Shown here piece after piece: positions 4,851 through 50,545 of a stretch of DNA of 64,000 nt. The DNA is taken from NCBI GenBank assembly GCA_009823395.1, contig CM020506.1, positions 23,360,501 through 23,424,500 on the forward strand, written 5' to 3'. The notes below the pieces were generated by a model. That model saw only the letters and a list, made by a program, of their open reading frames with translations, had not been told where the DNA came from and made no database searches. This DNA comes from Thamnaconus septentrionalis (lineage: Eukaryota > Chordata > Actinopteri > Tetraodontiformes > Monacanthidae). The stretch's first letter is position 1. The number at the start of each line of letters is the position of its first letter. A program made the position numbers and the translations under genes.

Positions 4851-6199
4851 ACAGGAGCACAATAGCACAGAGGAAGTGGAACACAGGGTTTGAATGATAG
4901 CAACTGGATACCAGACTGGCAGCATGGCAGCAAAGTGATTTTCAACCCCCAGTGCCCACTCAAAGTGCTGTAGCCAAAAAAAACCCATAGGGCCGAAAAA
5001 GCATTTTTCCCCATTAGGCCACAATACAAAAAAAGAAACTCCTGTCAGGACAACCTTTGACCTGAAACGCAGTTCATAATAAATCTTTCGCTTGCAGTTT
5101 TTTAAGTCATAGTTTTTTAGTCTTTCAAAAAATATGATAAAGGCCAGAAAATCACCAGAGAAGAGTTTTTATATCCCCAGTGTGACGTCACGGTGTCATA
5201 CGTTGCTGCTGTGTCTCGGCTCTTTCTGATTGGCTGATGCGCCTTGATGTATTGTGTGTGTTCCAGAGGCATTATGGGAAGTGACACCACTGCTACGTGT
5301 TCCATGAGGGGGCCGTATAATGCGGAAGCAACACAAAAGGCCAAAATTTTGGCTCTATCTAGCTTGCTAGCTAGCTTTCCAGTGTGTCTTTGTCTCTCCT
5401 CTTCCTCCTCCTCCTCCCTCCCCTCCTACAATCTAAAGAGCTTCCAATCCCTGTTTTTTTTTTGTTTTTTTTCCAGAGGAAGATGTTTCCCTGCAAACGT
5501 TAGCACAGCCGACACCAACCCCCCCACTCCACCCACCCTTCCACTTCCCCTCCTCCGCTCCCCCCCACAGCTACTTCTCACTGCCCACTTCATGCTGAAA
5601 TGATTAATATTTCATGGTCGGGGCTCAAGTCCGCCTTGGAAAATTGAGATAATATGAGTTCCCATGCTTGAAAGAAAACAAAACGTCTGTTTTGTTATGC
5701 CCCCTCACCATGTTGCATCCGAGCGACTAGAGAGCGAAAGTAAAAAATAAAAACTAATGACAGAAAATAAAAAAAAACTATAGAACGATAACAAAAATTA
5801 AACAGCAAAAAATAAAAAAATAAAAAAATGAAGAGCAAAAATTAAAAAATTTAATTATAGGGTGAAACTTAAAACTGTATAGCGAAAATCCTGTCCCCTT
5901 CAAGAGGCTGTGGCGTCCCCAACAGGCTCCTCATGCTGTCGTCTCCCCTGCCAGCACCACCACATCCAAAGTCTTTTAAGTCTTTTAAAAAAAAAAAAAA
6001 AAAAACATTGCAGATGAGGAACCAAAAAACAAAACAAAGCAGGAAAACAGGACAACAGGTCAGTGTGGTTGCTCTCACTCGGCTGGTTTTTAACCCCAGG
6101 GAACAAAACTGAGTGCAAACATTACAGCTGTTATTTACTCCCATTCAGACAACTCCCTCTACTTCTCACACCATACAGCCATCATTTTGCTGCCTGGTC

Positions 6200-6401
6200 A
6201 ATTTTGTGTGCGACCTGCGAGCGATCTGCGTCAAGCTGGACAGGAAGTCACTCAAAAAAACAAGAGAGAATCCAATTAATTTTCAAAAGAAAAGCAATTC
6301 TCAAAATAAAATACCGCAATTGACAAATGCAATAATTTGATAATTTGTTAGTATGTAGTAGCATCAGAGTGAGAGATGAAACAAACAAACATACGAACAC
6401 A

Positions 6402-6432
<31 letters not shown>

Positions 6433-6672
6433 AACACAAGTGATGAAGGGGCACACAGTGAAATGGTCAATCTCGCGGGCAAGTACTTGGCAACACCTGC
6501 CACATCTTTACCATGTGAGAGGTTATTCTCACTGTCTGGACATATTGTCCAGAGGAAGTGAGCTGCCCTGTTGTCAGAAAATGTCAAAAGATTTGTCTGT
6601 TTGAGCAGCTGGCCCAGTGCAAAATAAATATCTAAAATAAATATCTTGTTAAGTTACATATAGAGCAGGGTA
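6200..6672 (+). mobile_element. hAT remnant with (CA)n and transposase C-terminus
   Basis: Sequence from about 6,200 to 6,480 matches 15,000-15,275, both containing a (CA)n tract followed by GATGAAGGGGCACACAGTG or similar. Both copies also share the AAATATCTTGTTAAGTTACAT segment (6,630 and 15,472). Between these shared blocks, only this copy keeps a hAT dimerisation domain. Confidence 0.55.
6455..6625 (+). pseudogene. hAT transposase dimerisation (hATC) domain fragment
   Basis: The plus frame reads KYLATPATSLPCERLFSLSG then HIVQRK. This is the hallmark of the C-terminal dimerisation region of ZBED-type hAT transposases (PATSxPCERxFSxxG). The expected continuation (xRxxLLSENVxxxVCL) is present but in a different frame after about 6,560, so one indel broke it. 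Everything upstream of the domain is missing. It is a relic. Confidence 0.7.
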
Positions 6673-6681
6673 AAAAAAAAA

Positions 6682-7615
<934 letters not shown>

Positions 7616-8085
7616 GTTTGTGCTTATTCATGACTAGCTGATGATTTGCATGATGTGTTGCAGTAAAGCATCATGCGGGTTTTTCTCATTGTAACACAAA
7701 CACCCGTCAGGATGGTGGAGAAACATCAAGAAAGAGTTGTTTCTTCTCAAAGGCTCGAGGCTTCGACTCATAGCTCGTCACTATGTCATTTTGTTACATG
7801 AATATCAATAAACATCTGAGCTGCTGATGAGCTCAAACCCGGAGTGACCCAGAGTCTAACAGCACCCCTGGGCCTAAGGAGGAGGAAGTGCAGCTGAGGA
7901 CTTGTGAGCAGCTTTTTAAGACTGGACTCACAACAACAACAACAAGTCACATAATTCAGACGAACAACCAACACAAAAGCAAAAAACAAGACATGCAAAG
8001 ACTCAATCAGCGACTTAATAAGTCAACAAGTCAAGCTCACAAACACAAACACAACAGCTTTCATCATCTGTTGACCCTTTCAGCA

Positions 8086-25374: not shown

Positions 25375-26212
25375 ATTTGTCCACCATCGATTTCAAGATT
25401 CTTTTATTAGTTTTTAAATGTCTTAATGGTCTTGGGCCATCTTATCTATCTGACCTGCTTTTATCAGATCAACCCTTGCAGACCCTGAGGTCCTTTGGCA
25501 CTGGCCTTTTAACTGTGCCACGAATCAAAACAAAAACACACGGCAAGGCTGCATTCAGCCATTATGGTTCGTATCAATAGAACAACCTGTCAGAGAACCT
25601 CAGGGCTGCAGAGACTGTTGATATTTTTAAAAGGAAGCTCAAGACACCTTTTTAATTTGGCTTTTAACTGATTTTTTCACTCTCTTATTTTTCCTATTTT
25701 ATATTCTTATGCCTTTTATTCTCTTTGATGATTTTTAGACATTTTAATATTTAATCTGGCTTTTAACTGATTTCTCTTACTCCTTTATTTCTCTTATTTT
25801 AATATTCTTATGCCTCTTACTGTTATTAATGATTTTTAGACATTTTATGGTTACTGACTGTTTTTATGCCCTGCGATGAACTGGCGACTTGTCCAGGGTG
25901 TTACCCTGCCTTCGCCCTAAGACAGCTGTGACGACGCTCTATGGCCACCCATTGGTGGCCTTTCCTCACCCGTATCTTTAGTGCCATGCTATTTTATCCG
26001 TGTGTGTACGAGTGTGGACGTATGTGTGCACGTGTCTGTCTGGAGGGGCAGGTCCATTTGAGGGGGTGGGAGGGATGAGCTTTTATTTGCTCATTTTGTT
26101 GCATGTTTCGGCATTTTATTTTTGTTTTAATCTGTGAAGCACTTTGGTTTGCATTTTTCGTGCATGATAAGTACTATATAAATAAAGTTTGAATTGAATT
26201 GAATTGAATAAT
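25375..26212 (+). mobile_element. L2-type LINE, 3' end
   Basis: Begins inside ORF2: DFKILLLVFKCLNGLGPSYL, LRSFGTGLLTVPRIKTKTHG and AAFSHYG in one frame, then NLRAAETVDIFKRKLK in another. A 3' UTR ends ATAAATAAAGTTTGAATTG and a (GAATT)n tail at 26,187-26,210. It interrupts the Merlin-type transposase. Confidence 0.85.
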
Positions 26213-36143: not shown

Positions 36144-37209
36144 AGCAGCTTTAGGTAACTTGGACTCATTACTACTCCCTGCTGGTTGAGAACCGCAAAT
36201 ACTCTTTCCCATTCTATTTTTATATTTAATATTTTGTGTTTTTATACTACTCTTAATACTATTTTTCTTTGTTTTTATTACTGGTACTTTGAGTGGACAA
36301 CAAAGTAAGAATTTCATTGTACAGGGAAACGTGTTTCTTTACTGTGCATATGACAATAAATATACTTATTATTATTATTATTATTATACTTATATACTAA
36401 AGAGGAAAAATACCAGTCCTTCACGTGGGTCTGTTGACACAGCCGGCATACTGAAGAATCGCTTGGAAATATGTCCACCGACAAGGTAAAGTCACATGCG
36501 TTACATGTTTGTTTGTTTGAAATATTGTTATGTTGTTCTTTTGAACGTGACAGACAACTACAATTACACAAACAAGGATGGTGTATTGCTTGGACAGACG
36601 GCAGTGTTTTGCGCTTGGTTCGCATCATTCTCATTATGAAAATTGCTTGGAAATGATGTGGTGTATAATGGCTATTATATTACAACAGGTTATAAACTCG
36701 TGTAGCTGTAATGCCTACCACAACTTTTCAGAATTCGCAATGTCACATTGATTCGGTGGAAGTGGCGAAGTGACGAAGTAAACACGCTGCGTTTATTGAT
36801 GTGGGAAAATACAAATAGTGGCCTAGCTGGAGCGCTCGTATGTGTTGAGGAAAAACACCAATATGAAATGCAAAACAGACATTGACAATAACGTCGTAGC
36901 AAACGTTCAACACTTTTATTACCTCGTCTTTCATCGAGGTTACTTATTGGGTTCCATTCCGTCATTTTACAATCTTTTGTATTTGCAATAGTAGTATGTA
37001 AGACTGCCTCTAAATAAACGTGTGTCGTTGCCGTAAAGTGGTTCGTCCGGCGTGTCGGGTCGCGCTTGAAAGTTACGCAGTGCAGTTACAGGCGGCCCAA
37101 CCCCCCTCTCGCTGCTGAGGCGGCACCATTGATCCTATTAATCGTTTATCTACCGCTTTACTGAGTTTGGAATCACAATTTTATGGTCGAAAAGTTACCT
37201 AGAGTTGCT
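36144..37209 (-). mobile_element. TTAA-flanked element, copy A (inverted relative to copy B)
   Basis: Left end AGCAGCTTTAGGTAACTTGG. Right end, read inward, AGCAACTCTAGGTAACTTTT. TTAA sits at 36,140-36,143 and 37,210-37,213. It matches 49,691-50,463 in opposite orientation throughout, except for an insertion at about 36,208-36,398. TTAA duplication suggests piggyBac-type (or Kolobok-type) mobilisation. It carries the minus-strand frame starting MTEWNPISNLDERRG that is also in copy B. No transposase. Confidence 0.75.
36208..36398 (+). mobile_element. Retroelement 3' tail inserted in copy A
   Basis: Absent from copy B. Reads AAGAATTTCATTGTACAGGG, ATGACAATAAATATAC and then (TTA)n, a typical non-LTR 3' end with microsatellite tail. 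Copy B serves as the empty site. Confidence 0.7.
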
Positions 37210-37603
37210 TTAAGTATTGTAGAAGGGTTGAGTGGTGACAGCTGAACTTTGACGGATTCCTCCACTCATTCCTTGGACATTATGATGACATGAAGGAAAC
37301 ATGAAGTTTGCTGCAAAAATTTAACACAGAACCGCACGATTATTTGTGAAAAAAGAAAATCACAATTTCAATTCATTACTTGCAGTAATCTCAGCGCTTC
37401 CTTTAATGCTGCGTTCCTATTGGTCCATTGACATTCACATGGTCAAATCACATCGTTAAAGATGAACACAGGGCGCACTGACTGTTGTCACCAGTCACCA
37501 CAGTCACTCACTGCTAGATATCCTCTGCATTAAAAAAAAACACCAAACACAAGAAAAACCCCAGAAGCAGTGAAGTCGTCTCGTCCCGTCCAGATAGTGA
37601 ATC

Positions 37604-46329: not shown

Positions 46330-46596
46330 TATGGAGGACGAGGTGAATAGAGCAGTTTGCTGCCAAAGAATTTTAGGAGACCATCCGGGCTTCATGAGCC
46401 GTGTCAAGTTCTGAAGGGCGGTTCTTTTGAACTCTGCTCTGAGCCGCAGCCCTGTGTGTCACGGAATCATCCTTGTGTCAACCAGGTAGATCAAATTCCT
46501 GGCAGTTAATATGGCCGACATTAAAGCACAATTTGCAGGGAGAGGCTGATTTCCAAACGTAATCGGAGCTATCGACTGCACAGACGTTGCCATTAA
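46330..46596 (+). pseudogene. PIF/Harbinger DDE nuclease, part 1 of 3
   Basis: The frame around 46,510-46,596 reads NMADIKAQFAG, then (after a TGA) FPNVIGAIDCTDVAIK. The GAIDCTHVAIK block carries the first catalytic Asp of Harbinger nucleases. A possible terminal stretch of the element begins near 46,020 (CCTCATGGACAAAAGATTCTC, CGTACGCACG-type sequence). The frame is cut exactly at the ATTAA codon context by the TTAA element at 46,597 and resumes at 49,606. Confidence 0.65.
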
Positions 46597-46779
46597 AGGT
46601 CCCATATTATGCCACTTTTCCACTTGTTAAAATAGTTCTCAAATGTGTAAAAGACCTGTCTGTGACCTGCATTAGTCAAAATTGACTTTGGATCTAATAT
46701 TTGCTGTCCCTAAATCAGCAAAAAACCGCTCTGTTCAGAACAGCCCGTTTTAGGGCCTGTCACCTTTATGTTAATGAGC

Positions 46780-46870
46780 TGCACCTGGCCACGCCCTTCT
46801 CTCTCGAACGGGCTGTGGCTTCGGCTCCGGTAGCCATGCGCTAATGTTGTGAATGCGAAGCGACTCGGTC
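46780..46870 (+). promoter_or_regulatory. Probable 5' region of the P2X7-domain gene
   Basis: GC-richer than its surroundings (CTGGCCACGCCC, CTCCGGTAGCCATGCGC), directly before the start codon, which sits in an acceptable context (GGTCATGG). No TATA box was seen. Confidence 0.3.
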
Positions 46871-47871
46871 ATGGCTAGCAGAAGCAGTGTGGTGCAACCG
46901 TACCAGTTTGAGCCAGAGTCTGACCCAGAGGGAGAGGCTTCGGCAGAAATACGGACTCAACGACTGCAGCAGGACATTTCAGAGTGGTAAGATACAAATA
47001 CTGTGCGTCTTTCTATTTTAAAGTTTTTACTTTGTGCGTTGTTACACTGTTACTTACACGTTAGCTCATGCTAACGGCTTCGTCGCCCGGTTCTCGTCAT
47101 TACTTCGAGCTCTTCTGGTGAAAGAGTATTTTTCTAAACAGTGCAGTGACGTTATACTCATCTCTCCTCCGTATATTCTTCAAGTCTACCTATAAAAAAA
47201 AAGAAAGTTGTCGTCACGGAGCTGTTAGTAACCCCAGCAAATACTCAGACTGCTACCAGCATAATGCTAAAACTAAAAGGGTACTTAACTATCAAACTAT
47301 GTAACTAGGCAAAAACTATATATATAAAGTCTTGCAACGTTTTCAGCAGAGCTGTCTTAACATAGAAACGAACAGCCTTTTTTTTCCCCTAGGTATTTTT
47401 AATGTACCTTTTTTTTTTGTTTAACTTAAGCTTAAATATGTCTTTATCCACAATATGTCATAGTCAAAATTAGAGGCAGTGCCATGTTGCTTAAATGCCA
47501 CTGTTCTCCATCTCAACGTAAGACAAATGTCACAAGTCTTATCCAACTCTGCTTGTGTTGGCAACTTTCATTCAGGTGAAATTATAACTTTTTTCTTTTG
47601 ACAGGTGCTCCTGTGGAAACTGTAACACCATGCCCACGGAAAAGGAAAATGTATGCTGCTTGGAGATACCACAGGTAAGAGTCAAGATATCAAAAATGAA
47701 ATCTAATTTGTCTTGATTATGGTTTATTGCATACATCTTTGAGACACAATGGCATTTATACTTTGTACTATCTTGTAGGTTAGCAGATGCCTGCAGGAGG
47801 TTGAAGGGGACCTCAAATGCATGGTGGACCATCCAGGATTGGAGCCAGTATGCCTGAATAGGTTCATTTAA
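46871..47871 (+). CDS. Small three-exon protein with P2X7 intracellular-domain-like Cys cluster
   Basis: Exons 46,871-46,986, 47,605-47,674 and 47,779-47,871 join in frame (116, 70 and 93 nt) to 92 residues. The splice sites are GTAAGA...TTTTGACAG and GTAAGA...ATCTTGTAG. Exon 1 reads MASRSSVVQPYQFEPESDPE then an acidic stretch. Exon 2 gives WCSCGNCNTMPTEKENVCC, matching the WCxCGxC...CC zinc-binding start of the P2X7 intracellular (ballast) domain. Exon 3 gives CLQEVEGDLKCMVDHPGLEP then VCLN before a stop. Fish genomes contain many proteins labelled P2X7-like with this domain but no channel, from memory. Those usually continue well past VCLN, so this is a short form. An AATAAA at 47,934-47,939 lies 62 nt past the stop. 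No channel segments are present. Function unknown; zinc or nucleic-acid binding is a guess. Confidence 0.62.
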
Positions 47872-49609
47872 AATTAAAATCAAAGATTTTATGGATTACT
47901 TCTTTGCTTCAGTAGGTATAAAAATGTAACTGTAATAAAGTGTGACAAACAGGATATCTGTGTGTTTTTTTCATAAGCAAGCAATGTGTATGTAACCTAA
48001 TAATTGACAGGAGTCATTTCAGTATACACACTCAAACATTTATTGCCATTGAATTATTTACAGATAAGTTATAAATGTGATATTTGCAACACAGTATCCT
48101 TAGACCATCACATCAACTGAGGAAACAACATACAAGAAAACTATTTACAACTACACATAAAAAAGTGAACTTGGAGCCAACGATGACAGCTTCTGGTGGG
48201 AGTAGAGCCAGGGGGAACATGTCTGAAACAGATATTATTGGCAATGTTAATTATACTTTAGTATTAGAATTGCAAGAGAGTAGAGGGGAGCAAAGAAAGG
48301 GGAGTATTAGCCATATGTTATAGCAGGCAAAACAACAAAAATAAATTGTTATATAAATAAAAGTTATGTAACCACTGCACTAAGTATCTTGTCCAATGTC
48401 TTGTAGTCACATGGGGATTAGAACACATGTCATCACCCCCCACTATGTAGGTGAGCTGGTGTTTCGCTTGCAATTAACATTTGAATGAGGAAAAGCTGGA
48501 CGTAGGCTGAGTATCAACGATGAGTCAAAACAAGGCTGACGTTATAGGTATGTGAGAGGGGGAAGGGAGCTTTGAGACAAATCAAAGCCAATCTTTTAGA
48601 AGCCCAAAAACTACGCTAATTTATGAAAAGCCTTTTGGTGTCTAAAAGTAGGCTGTCACCCTGATTTTGCAGAGACACACACCTCTCAGGTTAGCTTCAA
48701 CTGCCTGCGGCTAACCTGCCATGAAGTTACTGAAATCGAATTGAGTTTGATAATCACCAGGCCGAAAACGAAGGTTATTTCTTAGAACACATTTTCACAC
48801 AGCTTTCTACTAACGTCCCCGTTTATTTTACATTACATTTGCGTTTAAACGTAACGTTAACGTTACTGCAGAGACTATGTTGTAGCGTTAGTTTACAACA
48901 GTAACGTTGACTTACGTTAGCTGCAATGCTAAAAACACATTGAAAGGATAGGAAGGGAACGAAGGCTTAACAGTACATCAAAATAAAATGTTAAAAACTT
49001 ACATCTTCCACGTTTGTAGTGGTGTCACGAACCGTTGGGACTGATCCATTCTTTGTGTTTAAACGAAGTGCAAATCCAGCTTTGAACTGCCTTTCAAACA
49101 GTCCTTCGTGAGATGGTTAGCACACACATACAACAGTTTTGGAACTGCTGTCGGTACACGTCCTTAAAAAATAAAAATAATCCACCGTCTTCCCAAAGAC
49201 TCGGACGACGGAGTTAGAAAAAGACTGGGATGCTCATTTGTGCAGCCAGAACCAGAGCAACCCCTTCTTCCTGATCGTAGTTTCGCCATTGTTCTCACCG
49301 GAGCGTTTGCGAGCAGAAGAAAATGGCACAGCTTCTGGACTTTCCGGGGGTTGTGACAAACCTTTCCCAGAGGCGGTGCCACTAACCTGAGGGGGCGGGG
49401 TCGAGTGCACTTCTGTGTCTTGGTGACATCACCATGTCACGGAAGTACGATCTGCCCGTTTGAAGCACAAATGTTCGCAAGTAGGAAAAACTAAAGACGG
49501 TCAAGGACGGACTTTTTTCATACCAGGGGGGATCGTAGACTTGCCGGGGATGCATATTATTGATAGAAAACCGCACTAAAGTGCATTTTGCATACTATGG
49601 GACCTTTAA

Positions 49610-49690
49610 GGCGCAATCACACGATAAAAAAAATACGTAATTTCATTCCATCAATGCAGATCATCAGTGGTGCACGCATGTAGGTATTAA
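49610..49690 (+). pseudogene. PIF/Harbinger DDE nuclease, part 2 of 3
   Basis: Directly after TTAA the frame continues AIKAQSHDKKN, a stop, then FHSINADHQW and HVGI, matching the Harbinger block KAPSxxxxxxxxRKxFHSINVQIICD that follows the first Asp. It is cut again at TTAA by copy B (49,691). Confidence 0.65.
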
Positions 49691-50463
49691 AGCAACTCTA
49701 GGTAACTTTTCGACCATAAAATTATGATTCCAAACTCAGTAAAGCCGTAGATAAACGATTAATAGGATCAATGGTGCCGCCTCGGCAGCGAGAGGGGGGT
49801 TGGGCCAGCTGTAACTGCACTGTGTAACTGTCTTACGTACTACTATTACAAAAATACATAAGATTGTAAAATGACGGAATGGAACCCAATAAGTAACCTC
49901 GATGAAAGACGAGGTAATAAAAGTGTTGAGCGTTTGCTACGACATTATTGTCAATGTCTGTTTTGCATTTCATATTGTGGTTTTTCCTCAACACACACGA
50001 GCACTCCAGCTAGGCCACTATTTGTATTTTCCCACATCAATAAACTAGCGCTGCAGCGTGTTTACTTCGTCACTTCGCCACTTCCACCGAATCAATGCGA
50101 CGTTGCGTCGTCCCAACAGTTGTTGTAGGCATTACAGCTACACGAGTTTATAACCTGATGAGAATGATGCGAACCAAGCGCAAAACACTGCCGCCTGTCT
50201 AATCAATACACTATCCTTGTTTGTGTAATTGTAGTTGTCTGTCACCTTCAAAAGAACAACATAACAATATTTCAAACAAACAAACATGTAACGCATGTTA
50301 CTTTACCTTGTTGGTGGACATATTTCCAAGCAATTCTTCAGGATGCCGGCTGTGTCAACAAACCCATGTGAAGGTATTTTTCCTCTTTACGACACCGGCA
50401 AAGAGTATTTGCGGTTCTCAACCAGCAGGGAGTAGTAATGAGTCCAAGTTACCTAGAGCTGCT
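49691..50463 (+). mobile_element. 773 bp TTAA-flanked element, copy B
   Basis: Ends AGCAACTCTAGGTAACTTTT and (inward from the right) AGCAGCTCTAGGTAACTTGG. TTAA lies at 49,687-49,690 and 50,464-50,467. Same family as copy A in opposite orientation, without the retroelement tail insertion. The frame from 49,871 (MTEWNPISNLDERRG) is shared with copy A up to FSHINK and then shifts. Confidence 0.8.
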
Positions 50464-50545
50464 TTAATATTGCGGCGCAGGCTGCTTCAACAAATGATTG
50501 AGTGAAGCTGGTCTCCAGCTGGCATGGTGCTCGATGGTTGACTCT
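50464..50545 (+). pseudogene. PIF/Harbinger DDE nuclease, part 3 of 3
   Basis: Reading across the TTAA gives GINIAAQAASTND, aligned with the Harbinger NVVARWPGSTND block, then a stop, KLVSSWHGARWLTL. The second catalytic Asp region is expected here; it is followed by no recognisable third acid. Homology fades by about 50,550. Confidence 0.55.

What the first reader, a model, noticed from the sequence alone, without database searches (positions are those of the whole stretch)
46597..49605. Apparently intact three-exon gene with a P2X7 intracellular-domain Cys cluster carried inside a TTAA-flanked transposon
Seen: three exons with consensus splice sites join to an uninterrupted 92-codon frame with WCSCGNC...CC, a start in reasonable context and an AATAAA 62 nt after the stop. 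All of this lies within TIRs flanked by TTAA. It is one of very few undamaged frames in a window of wrecks. Known: the P2X7 ballast domain binds zinc and guanine nucleotides, and channel-free P2X7-like proteins are numerous in fish gene sets. Inference: their copy number may come from transposition of this element type, and an intact frame suggests recent movement or selection.
Basis: partly seen in the sequence, partly recalled or inferred. Interest (0 to 1): 0.75.

Follow-up and report, generated by a model that had tools for sequence, protein, structure and literature searches.

The report
Broken Kolobok transposon carrying truncated KolX
This stretch of what looks like fish DNA is an internally deleted copy of a known type of jumping gene (Kolobok) whose small accessory gene is related to the tail of the P2X7 receptor; it is real but essentially ordinary.

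Summary
The sequence facts hold: TTAA-flanked ends form a 20-nt inverted repeat (19/20), and three exons join into an open 92-codon frame with the P2X7 ballast cysteine cluster. But the frame is not intact. The closest relative (Nelusetta ayraudi, 156 aa, 91% identical) and 78 of 78 relatives returned by a search with it continue past the window's stop; the missing half, with the last zinc-motif cysteine, was not found elsewhere in the window. So this is a non-autonomous deletion derivative of a Kol0-type Kolobok element. That KolX of Kolobok is the channel-free ballast protein, and the source of the P2X7 ballast, is already in print (Kojima and Bao 2022, PMC9587614). Copy number by transposition is right in kind but known; 'intact, recent or selected' is not supported. 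The host genome could not be searched.

The parts
46593..46596 (.). TTAA target-site duplication, left
46597..46612 (+). left terminal inverted repeat, starts 5'-AGGTCCCATA
46871..46986 (+). KolX exon 1 (in-frame upstream ATG at 46853)
   Evidence: 46853-46987 is 93% identical to P0001 residues 1-45
47605..47674 (+). KolX exon 2, WCSCGNC...CC cysteine cluster
   Evidence: profile match
47779..47871 (+). KolX exon 3, truncated: homology to P0001 ends at 47865 (CLNRF), stop codon ends at 47871
47934..47939 (+). AATAAA, possible polyadenylation signal of KolX
49003..49289 (-). THAP-domain exon 1 of the transposase, with an in-frame stop and a frame change; followed on the minus strand by GTAAGT (49002-48997)
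   Evidence: sequence, donor counted by eye; THAP E=0.0084, below cut-off; E=2.5e-23 to P0006
48000..49002 (.). remainder with no credible match to P0006 residues 101-692 or to the KolX C-terminal half; taken as non-coding remnant of the deleted interior (inference)
49590..49605 (-). right terminal inverted repeat
49606..49609 (.). TTAA target-site duplication, right

Best explanation
A 3.0-kb non-autonomous, internally deleted derivative of a Kol0-type Kolobok element. The parent carried two convergent genes: KolX (plus strand, three exons, beginning near the left end) and a THAP-type transposase (minus strand, beginning near the right end). In this copy the C-terminal half of KolX and everything of the transposase after its first exon are gone, and the THAP exon has lost its frame. 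It can have moved only by transposase supplied from full-length relatives acting on its ends; it now makes no transposase and at best a half KolX without the seventh zinc-motif cysteine and the nucleotide-binding side of the ballast fold. Shown: ends, exon model, truncation, THAP exon, absence of the rest. Inferred: convergent parent layout, mobilisation in trans, lack of function.
For: TTAA plus RR/YY ends match the Kolobok definition in PMC9587614 and the AG ends and TTAA of Xenopus Kolobok. KolX relatives 91% and 69% identical; a profile of 35 of the 78 relatives hits P2X7 residues 469-594 at E=1.2e-12. The AlphaFold model of P0001 is of middling quality (pLDDT 72.9, pTM 0.57); P2X7 gives its only two matches with probability 1.00, at E 0.0067 and 0.03. 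THAP exon 77% identical over 65 aa to a 692-aa THAP protein, E=2.5e-23, the only hit among 16 candidates. Truncation: 78 of 78 relatives go on; a C-half profile finds nothing credible in element or window. P0005, from an unnamed 1.5-kb contig, matches 47624-47926 at 94% aa across the truncation point, so the truncated form exists in at least one other sequence.
Against: No full-length element linking KolX and this THAP transposase was retrieved; the link rests on co-residence here and on the published statement that Kol0 encodes a transposase and KolX (that paper does not use the word THAP). P0006 has no Pfam DDE hit and no C/DxxH at the expected place (only at 56 and 611), so it may itself be decayed and its being a Kolobok transposase rests on THAP plus an H2CH-like string. 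A Pfam scan of the six unspliced frames of the element found no family above chance, but it did not recover KolX or THAP either, so it is weak. P0005 might be the same locus in the same or a near species. The genome search did not complete.
Confidence: 0.9

Rival explanations
1. The element captured a P2X7 exon from the host (a Pack-type transposon), rather than carrying its own gene.
For: Clear homology to the P2X7 ballast domain.
Against: The ballast of P2X7 is coded by one exon, exon 13 (passages of PMC7016195), while here the homologous stretch is split by two introns. The window protein scores 183 bits against the channel-free P0001 and 134 against P0002 but 15 bits against solved P2X7. 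A published source places KolX in Kolobok elements of diverse animals.
Confidence: 0.03
2. A host-domesticated short KolX (nanor-like) gene kept under selection inside old transposon ends.
For: Open frame, good splice sites, AATAAA; nanor is proposed as a domesticated KolX in PMC9587614.
Against: Ends still match 19/20; the frame lacks many positions that are invariant or at least 90% conserved in 35 relatives; the sibling P0005 reads as frame-shifted near the start of exon 2 and changed at the exon-2 donor (inferred). No transcript or dN/dS data were available.
Confidence: 0.05
3. A piggyBac element, which also uses TTAA and of which a few encode a KolX-like protein.
For: TTAA target; [quoted passage not shown]
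Against: Ends are AG...CT, the RR/YY by which that paper sets Kolobok apart from piggyBac; it says those piggyBac proteins lack most of the cysteines and resemble the C-terminal part, whereas here the cysteine half is what remains; the transposase relic is THAP-type.
Confidence: 0.02

Closest known systems
Kolobok superfamily, Kol0 lineage (transposase + KolX; PMC9587614: abstract, sections 3 and 10 and passages seen)
   Same: TTAA duplications, RR/YY ends, KolX with ballast cysteines, a transposase gene relic
   Different: this copy lacks all of the transposase after its THAP exon and half of KolX
Channel-free 'P2X purinoceptor 7-like' proteins of teleosts (P0001 Nelusetta, P0007 Sparus and others)
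   Same: same protein family; P0001 reads across the same two exon junctions
   Different: P0001 is 156 aa and goes on into the C-terminal half, as do 78 of 78 relatives
P2X7 receptor ballast domain (PDB 6u9v, 9e3m)
   Same: homologous cysteine-rich domain
   Different: no P2X channel part in the 92-aa frame; 6 of 7 motif cysteines
T2-MITE and XKol elements of Xenopus (PMC6004289, passages seen)
   Same: TTAA and AG-type ends; T2-MITE is a presumed non-autonomous Kolobok
   Different: other terminal sequences beyond AG; the word KolX does not occur in that paper

Membership tests
Kolobok superfamily (non-autonomous derivative) | TTAA target-site duplication | tested here: met
Kolobok superfamily (non-autonomous derivative) | 5'-RR ... 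YY-3' termini | tested here: met
   AG...CT; definition
Kolobok superfamily (non-autonomous derivative) | THAP DNA-binding domain of the transposase (a usual feature) | tested here: met
   broken exon only: C2CH pattern, THAP E=0.0084, below cut-off, E=2.5e-23 to a 692-aa THAP protein
Kolobok superfamily (as an autonomous element) | DDD/E catalytic part and H2CH finger | tested here: not met
   absent from this copy, so it is not filed as an autonomous Kolobok; the relative P0006 has an H2CH-like string at 507-519 but no confirmed DDE
Kol0 lineage | second gene KolX with ballast cysteines | tested here: met
   present but truncated; 6 of the 7 cysteines of the P2X7 motifs by motif matching; in the profile alignment the CC pair is not placed on the CC of P2X7, the others are
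Kol0 lineage | place in the Kol0 clade of the transposase tree | not testable with these tools
   the catalytic region is absent from this copy
P2X7 receptor | P2X channel domain fused to the ballast | tested here: not met
   only P2RX7_C in the 92-aa frame and in P0001; no P2X family in the six unspliced frames (a weak test)
piggyBac | ends other than RR/YY | tested here: not met
   ends are AG...CT; contrast drawn
piggyBac | piggyBac transposase | tested here: inconclusive
   no such family in the six unspliced frames, but that scan also missed KolX and THAP

The most novel reading that the evidence does not exclude
The half-length KolX is not just debris: a deletion derivative that keeps the zinc-cysteine half of KolX, and the THAP exon on the other strand, has been multiplied as a parasite of full-length elements, with the short KolX competing with the full protein.
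Probability: 0.05. Interest if true: 0.5.

Novelty: new member of a known kind. Interest (0 to 1): 0.2.

Why it matters
It is a concrete example, with parts of both genes in one element, of how channel-free P2X7-like entries in fish gene sets can come from Kolobok transposons rather than from the receptor. The practical point is that such gene models should be suspected of being transposon proteins. The evolutionary point (origin of the P2X7 ballast) is already published.

Tried and rejected
Own-genome search for other copies with these ends: the genome search did not answer in six tries, so there is no copy number, flank comparison or dN/dS. Viral contigs: 0 matches to the 20-nt left end and none to P0001; plasmids: none to P0001. 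Both are poor places to look for fish DNA. Other copies in the window: none; five matches of 20-29 nt elsewhere at E 0.013 or worse, and one of 16 nt inside the element itself.

Insertion site: the flanks joined at one TTAA read VIGAIDCTDVAI|KAQSHDKKNT*FHSIN, which I recall as resembling a PIF/Harbinger transposase motif and which would mean insertion into a Harbinger relic. Pfam and PDB sequences gave no hit, so this stays an unproven recollection.

Rejected: captured P2X7 exon, piggyBac, and a further exon that supplies the C-terminus (C-half profile best E 0.31 in the whole window, tblastn of P0001 98-156 best E 0.20). Pfam on the six unspliced frames of the element with stops read through gave only chance-level hits (best E 0.1) and missed KolX and THAP too. 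A bacterial-type promoter scan of the left end found nothing and is not meant for vertebrates.

Full report
Observation. The segment 46597-49605 is bounded by TTAA on both sides and by a 20-nt inverted repeat, TTAA included, with 19 of 20 positions complementary. The ends read AG...CT. The protein matches Pfam P2RX7_C (PF20478) at E=1.3e-4, one bit under that family's cut-off.

The frame is truncated. A search of 5.8 billion proteins gave five matches at E<=10. P0001 and the anchovy proteins P0002 and P0003 run on after ...EPVCLN for about 60 residues, while the window stops at CLNRFI. P0004 is a 75-aa piece that matches exon 1 and then departs, so it says nothing on this. A search with P0001 gave 78 proteins at E<=0.001 among 98 candidates. 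By my count of the printed names, 67 of 78 have a named source, 66 of these teleosts and one a crinoid, and 48 of 78 are called P2X purinoceptor 7 or 7-like. All 78 continue at least 20 residues past that point (P0004 and P0005, which only one search returned, were left out). The search was made with a full-length query, so it may favour full-length relatives. The lost half holds residues conserved in at least 90% of the relatives that fill those columns, among them the WCW and IPAC cysteines. A profile of that half finds nothing credible in the element or the whole window, while the N-half profile finds all three exons at 9e-15 to 7e-11 in the element. Of the seven cysteines of the three P2X7 motifs described by Rump and others (WCxCx2C; CC...C; PSC), six remain by motif matching; in the profile alignment to P2X7 the CC pair is not placed on the CC of P2X7, so that pairing is my reading. 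The window also has a cysteine where 66 of 69 relatives have arginine.

A second gene. On the minus strand from 49289 the frame MAKLRSGRRGCSGSGCTNEH... was used as a query with only residues 1-65 scored; of 16 candidates one protein passed E<=1, P0006 from the pipefish Vanacampus margaritifer (lineage), 692 aa, 77% identical, E=2.5e-23. Pfam finds THAP in P0006 at 9e-11 and in the window piece at 0.0084, below the cut-off; pieces cut at the stops gave nothing. tblastn of P0006 at E<=0.01 matches the window in two frames, residues 1-75 (one stop) and 68-100, running into a GTAAGT donor, and nowhere else; residues 101-692 have no credible match (best E 0.80). The exon is thus broken and the rest of the transposase is gone. 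Kolobok transposases usually carry THAP, DDE and H2CH parts (PMC6004289, passage). P0006 has THAP and an H2CH-like string, but Pfam shows no DDE family and the C/DxxH pattern is not found where expected, so P0006 may itself be decayed. A Pfam scan of all six unspliced frames of the element, stops read through, gave only chance-level hits, and missed KolX and THAP as well.

What it is. Kol0 Kolobok elements encode a transposase and KolX; TTAA duplications and RR/YY ends mark the superfamily (PMC9587614 section 3). What is visible here fits, so I read the element as a deletion derivative that needs transposase from elsewhere. P0005, a translation from an unnamed 1.5-kb contig, matches 47624-47926 at 94% aa, in a frame other than that of exon 3, and crosses the truncation point. 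Hence the truncated form exists in another sequence, either a second copy or the same locus in the same or a related species.

KolX and P2X7. A profile of 35 of the 78 relatives matches P2X7 residues 469-594 at E=1.2e-12. The AlphaFold model of P0001 (mean pLDDT 72.9, pTM 0.57) has rat and human P2X7 as its top two PDB matches with probability 1.00, but at E 0.0067 and 0.03, TM 0.47 and 0.45, and none at E<=0.001, so the fold match is supportive rather than strong. In a tree of 37 of the 78 relatives plus the window, six Misgurnus sequences fall in several separate groups: one with Gadus and Odontesthes (94/60, weak), one with Leuciscus (100/99), one with Alosa (98/88), the rest elsewhere; the window pairs with Nelusetta (100/99). 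Ten of 35 inner branches are open, but the scatter is what transposon families show.

What is known. Kojima and Bao 2022 (PMC9587614: abstract, sections 3 and 10 and passages seen) state that KolX is homologous to the P2X7 tail, that the channel-free relatives are parts of Kolobok elements, that P2X7 arose by fusion with KolX, and that nanor is a likely domesticated KolX. Rump and others 2020 (PMC7016195: passages, abstract among them) described the channel-free proteins without mention of transposons (0 occurrences of 'transpos'). A library search for 'KolX' gives one paper.

Limits. The species is unknown; the relatives suggest a teleost. The host genome could not be searched, so neither copy number nor dN/dS was measured, and lack of function is inferred.

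Noticed in passing
49685-50469, and 36483-37213 on the other strand: A second inverted-repeat element (24-nt arms, 96% complementary, TATTAAAGCAACTCTAGGTAACTT) just right of the Kolobok copy, with a relative at 36483-37213 matching in two pieces at 84% and 95%.
   Followed up: partly
46550-46596 joined to 49610-49667: Flanks joined at one TTAA give VIGAIDCTDVAIKAQSH...FHSIN, recalled as Harbinger-like; Pfam and PDB searches gave no hit.
   Followed up: partly
6683-7611: 929-bp AT-rich tandem array (ATAT unit, 84-86% matches); 6001-8000 is the most AT-rich 2-kb step of the window, GC 0.256.
   Followed up: no
25651-25847: Two head-to-tail copies of a 101-bp unit, 84% matches.
   Followed up: no
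47934-48044: AATAAA on the plus strand at 47934 and TTTATT (AATAAA on the minus strand) about 100 bp on, as expected for two convergent genes ending side by side (sequence).
   Followed up: partly
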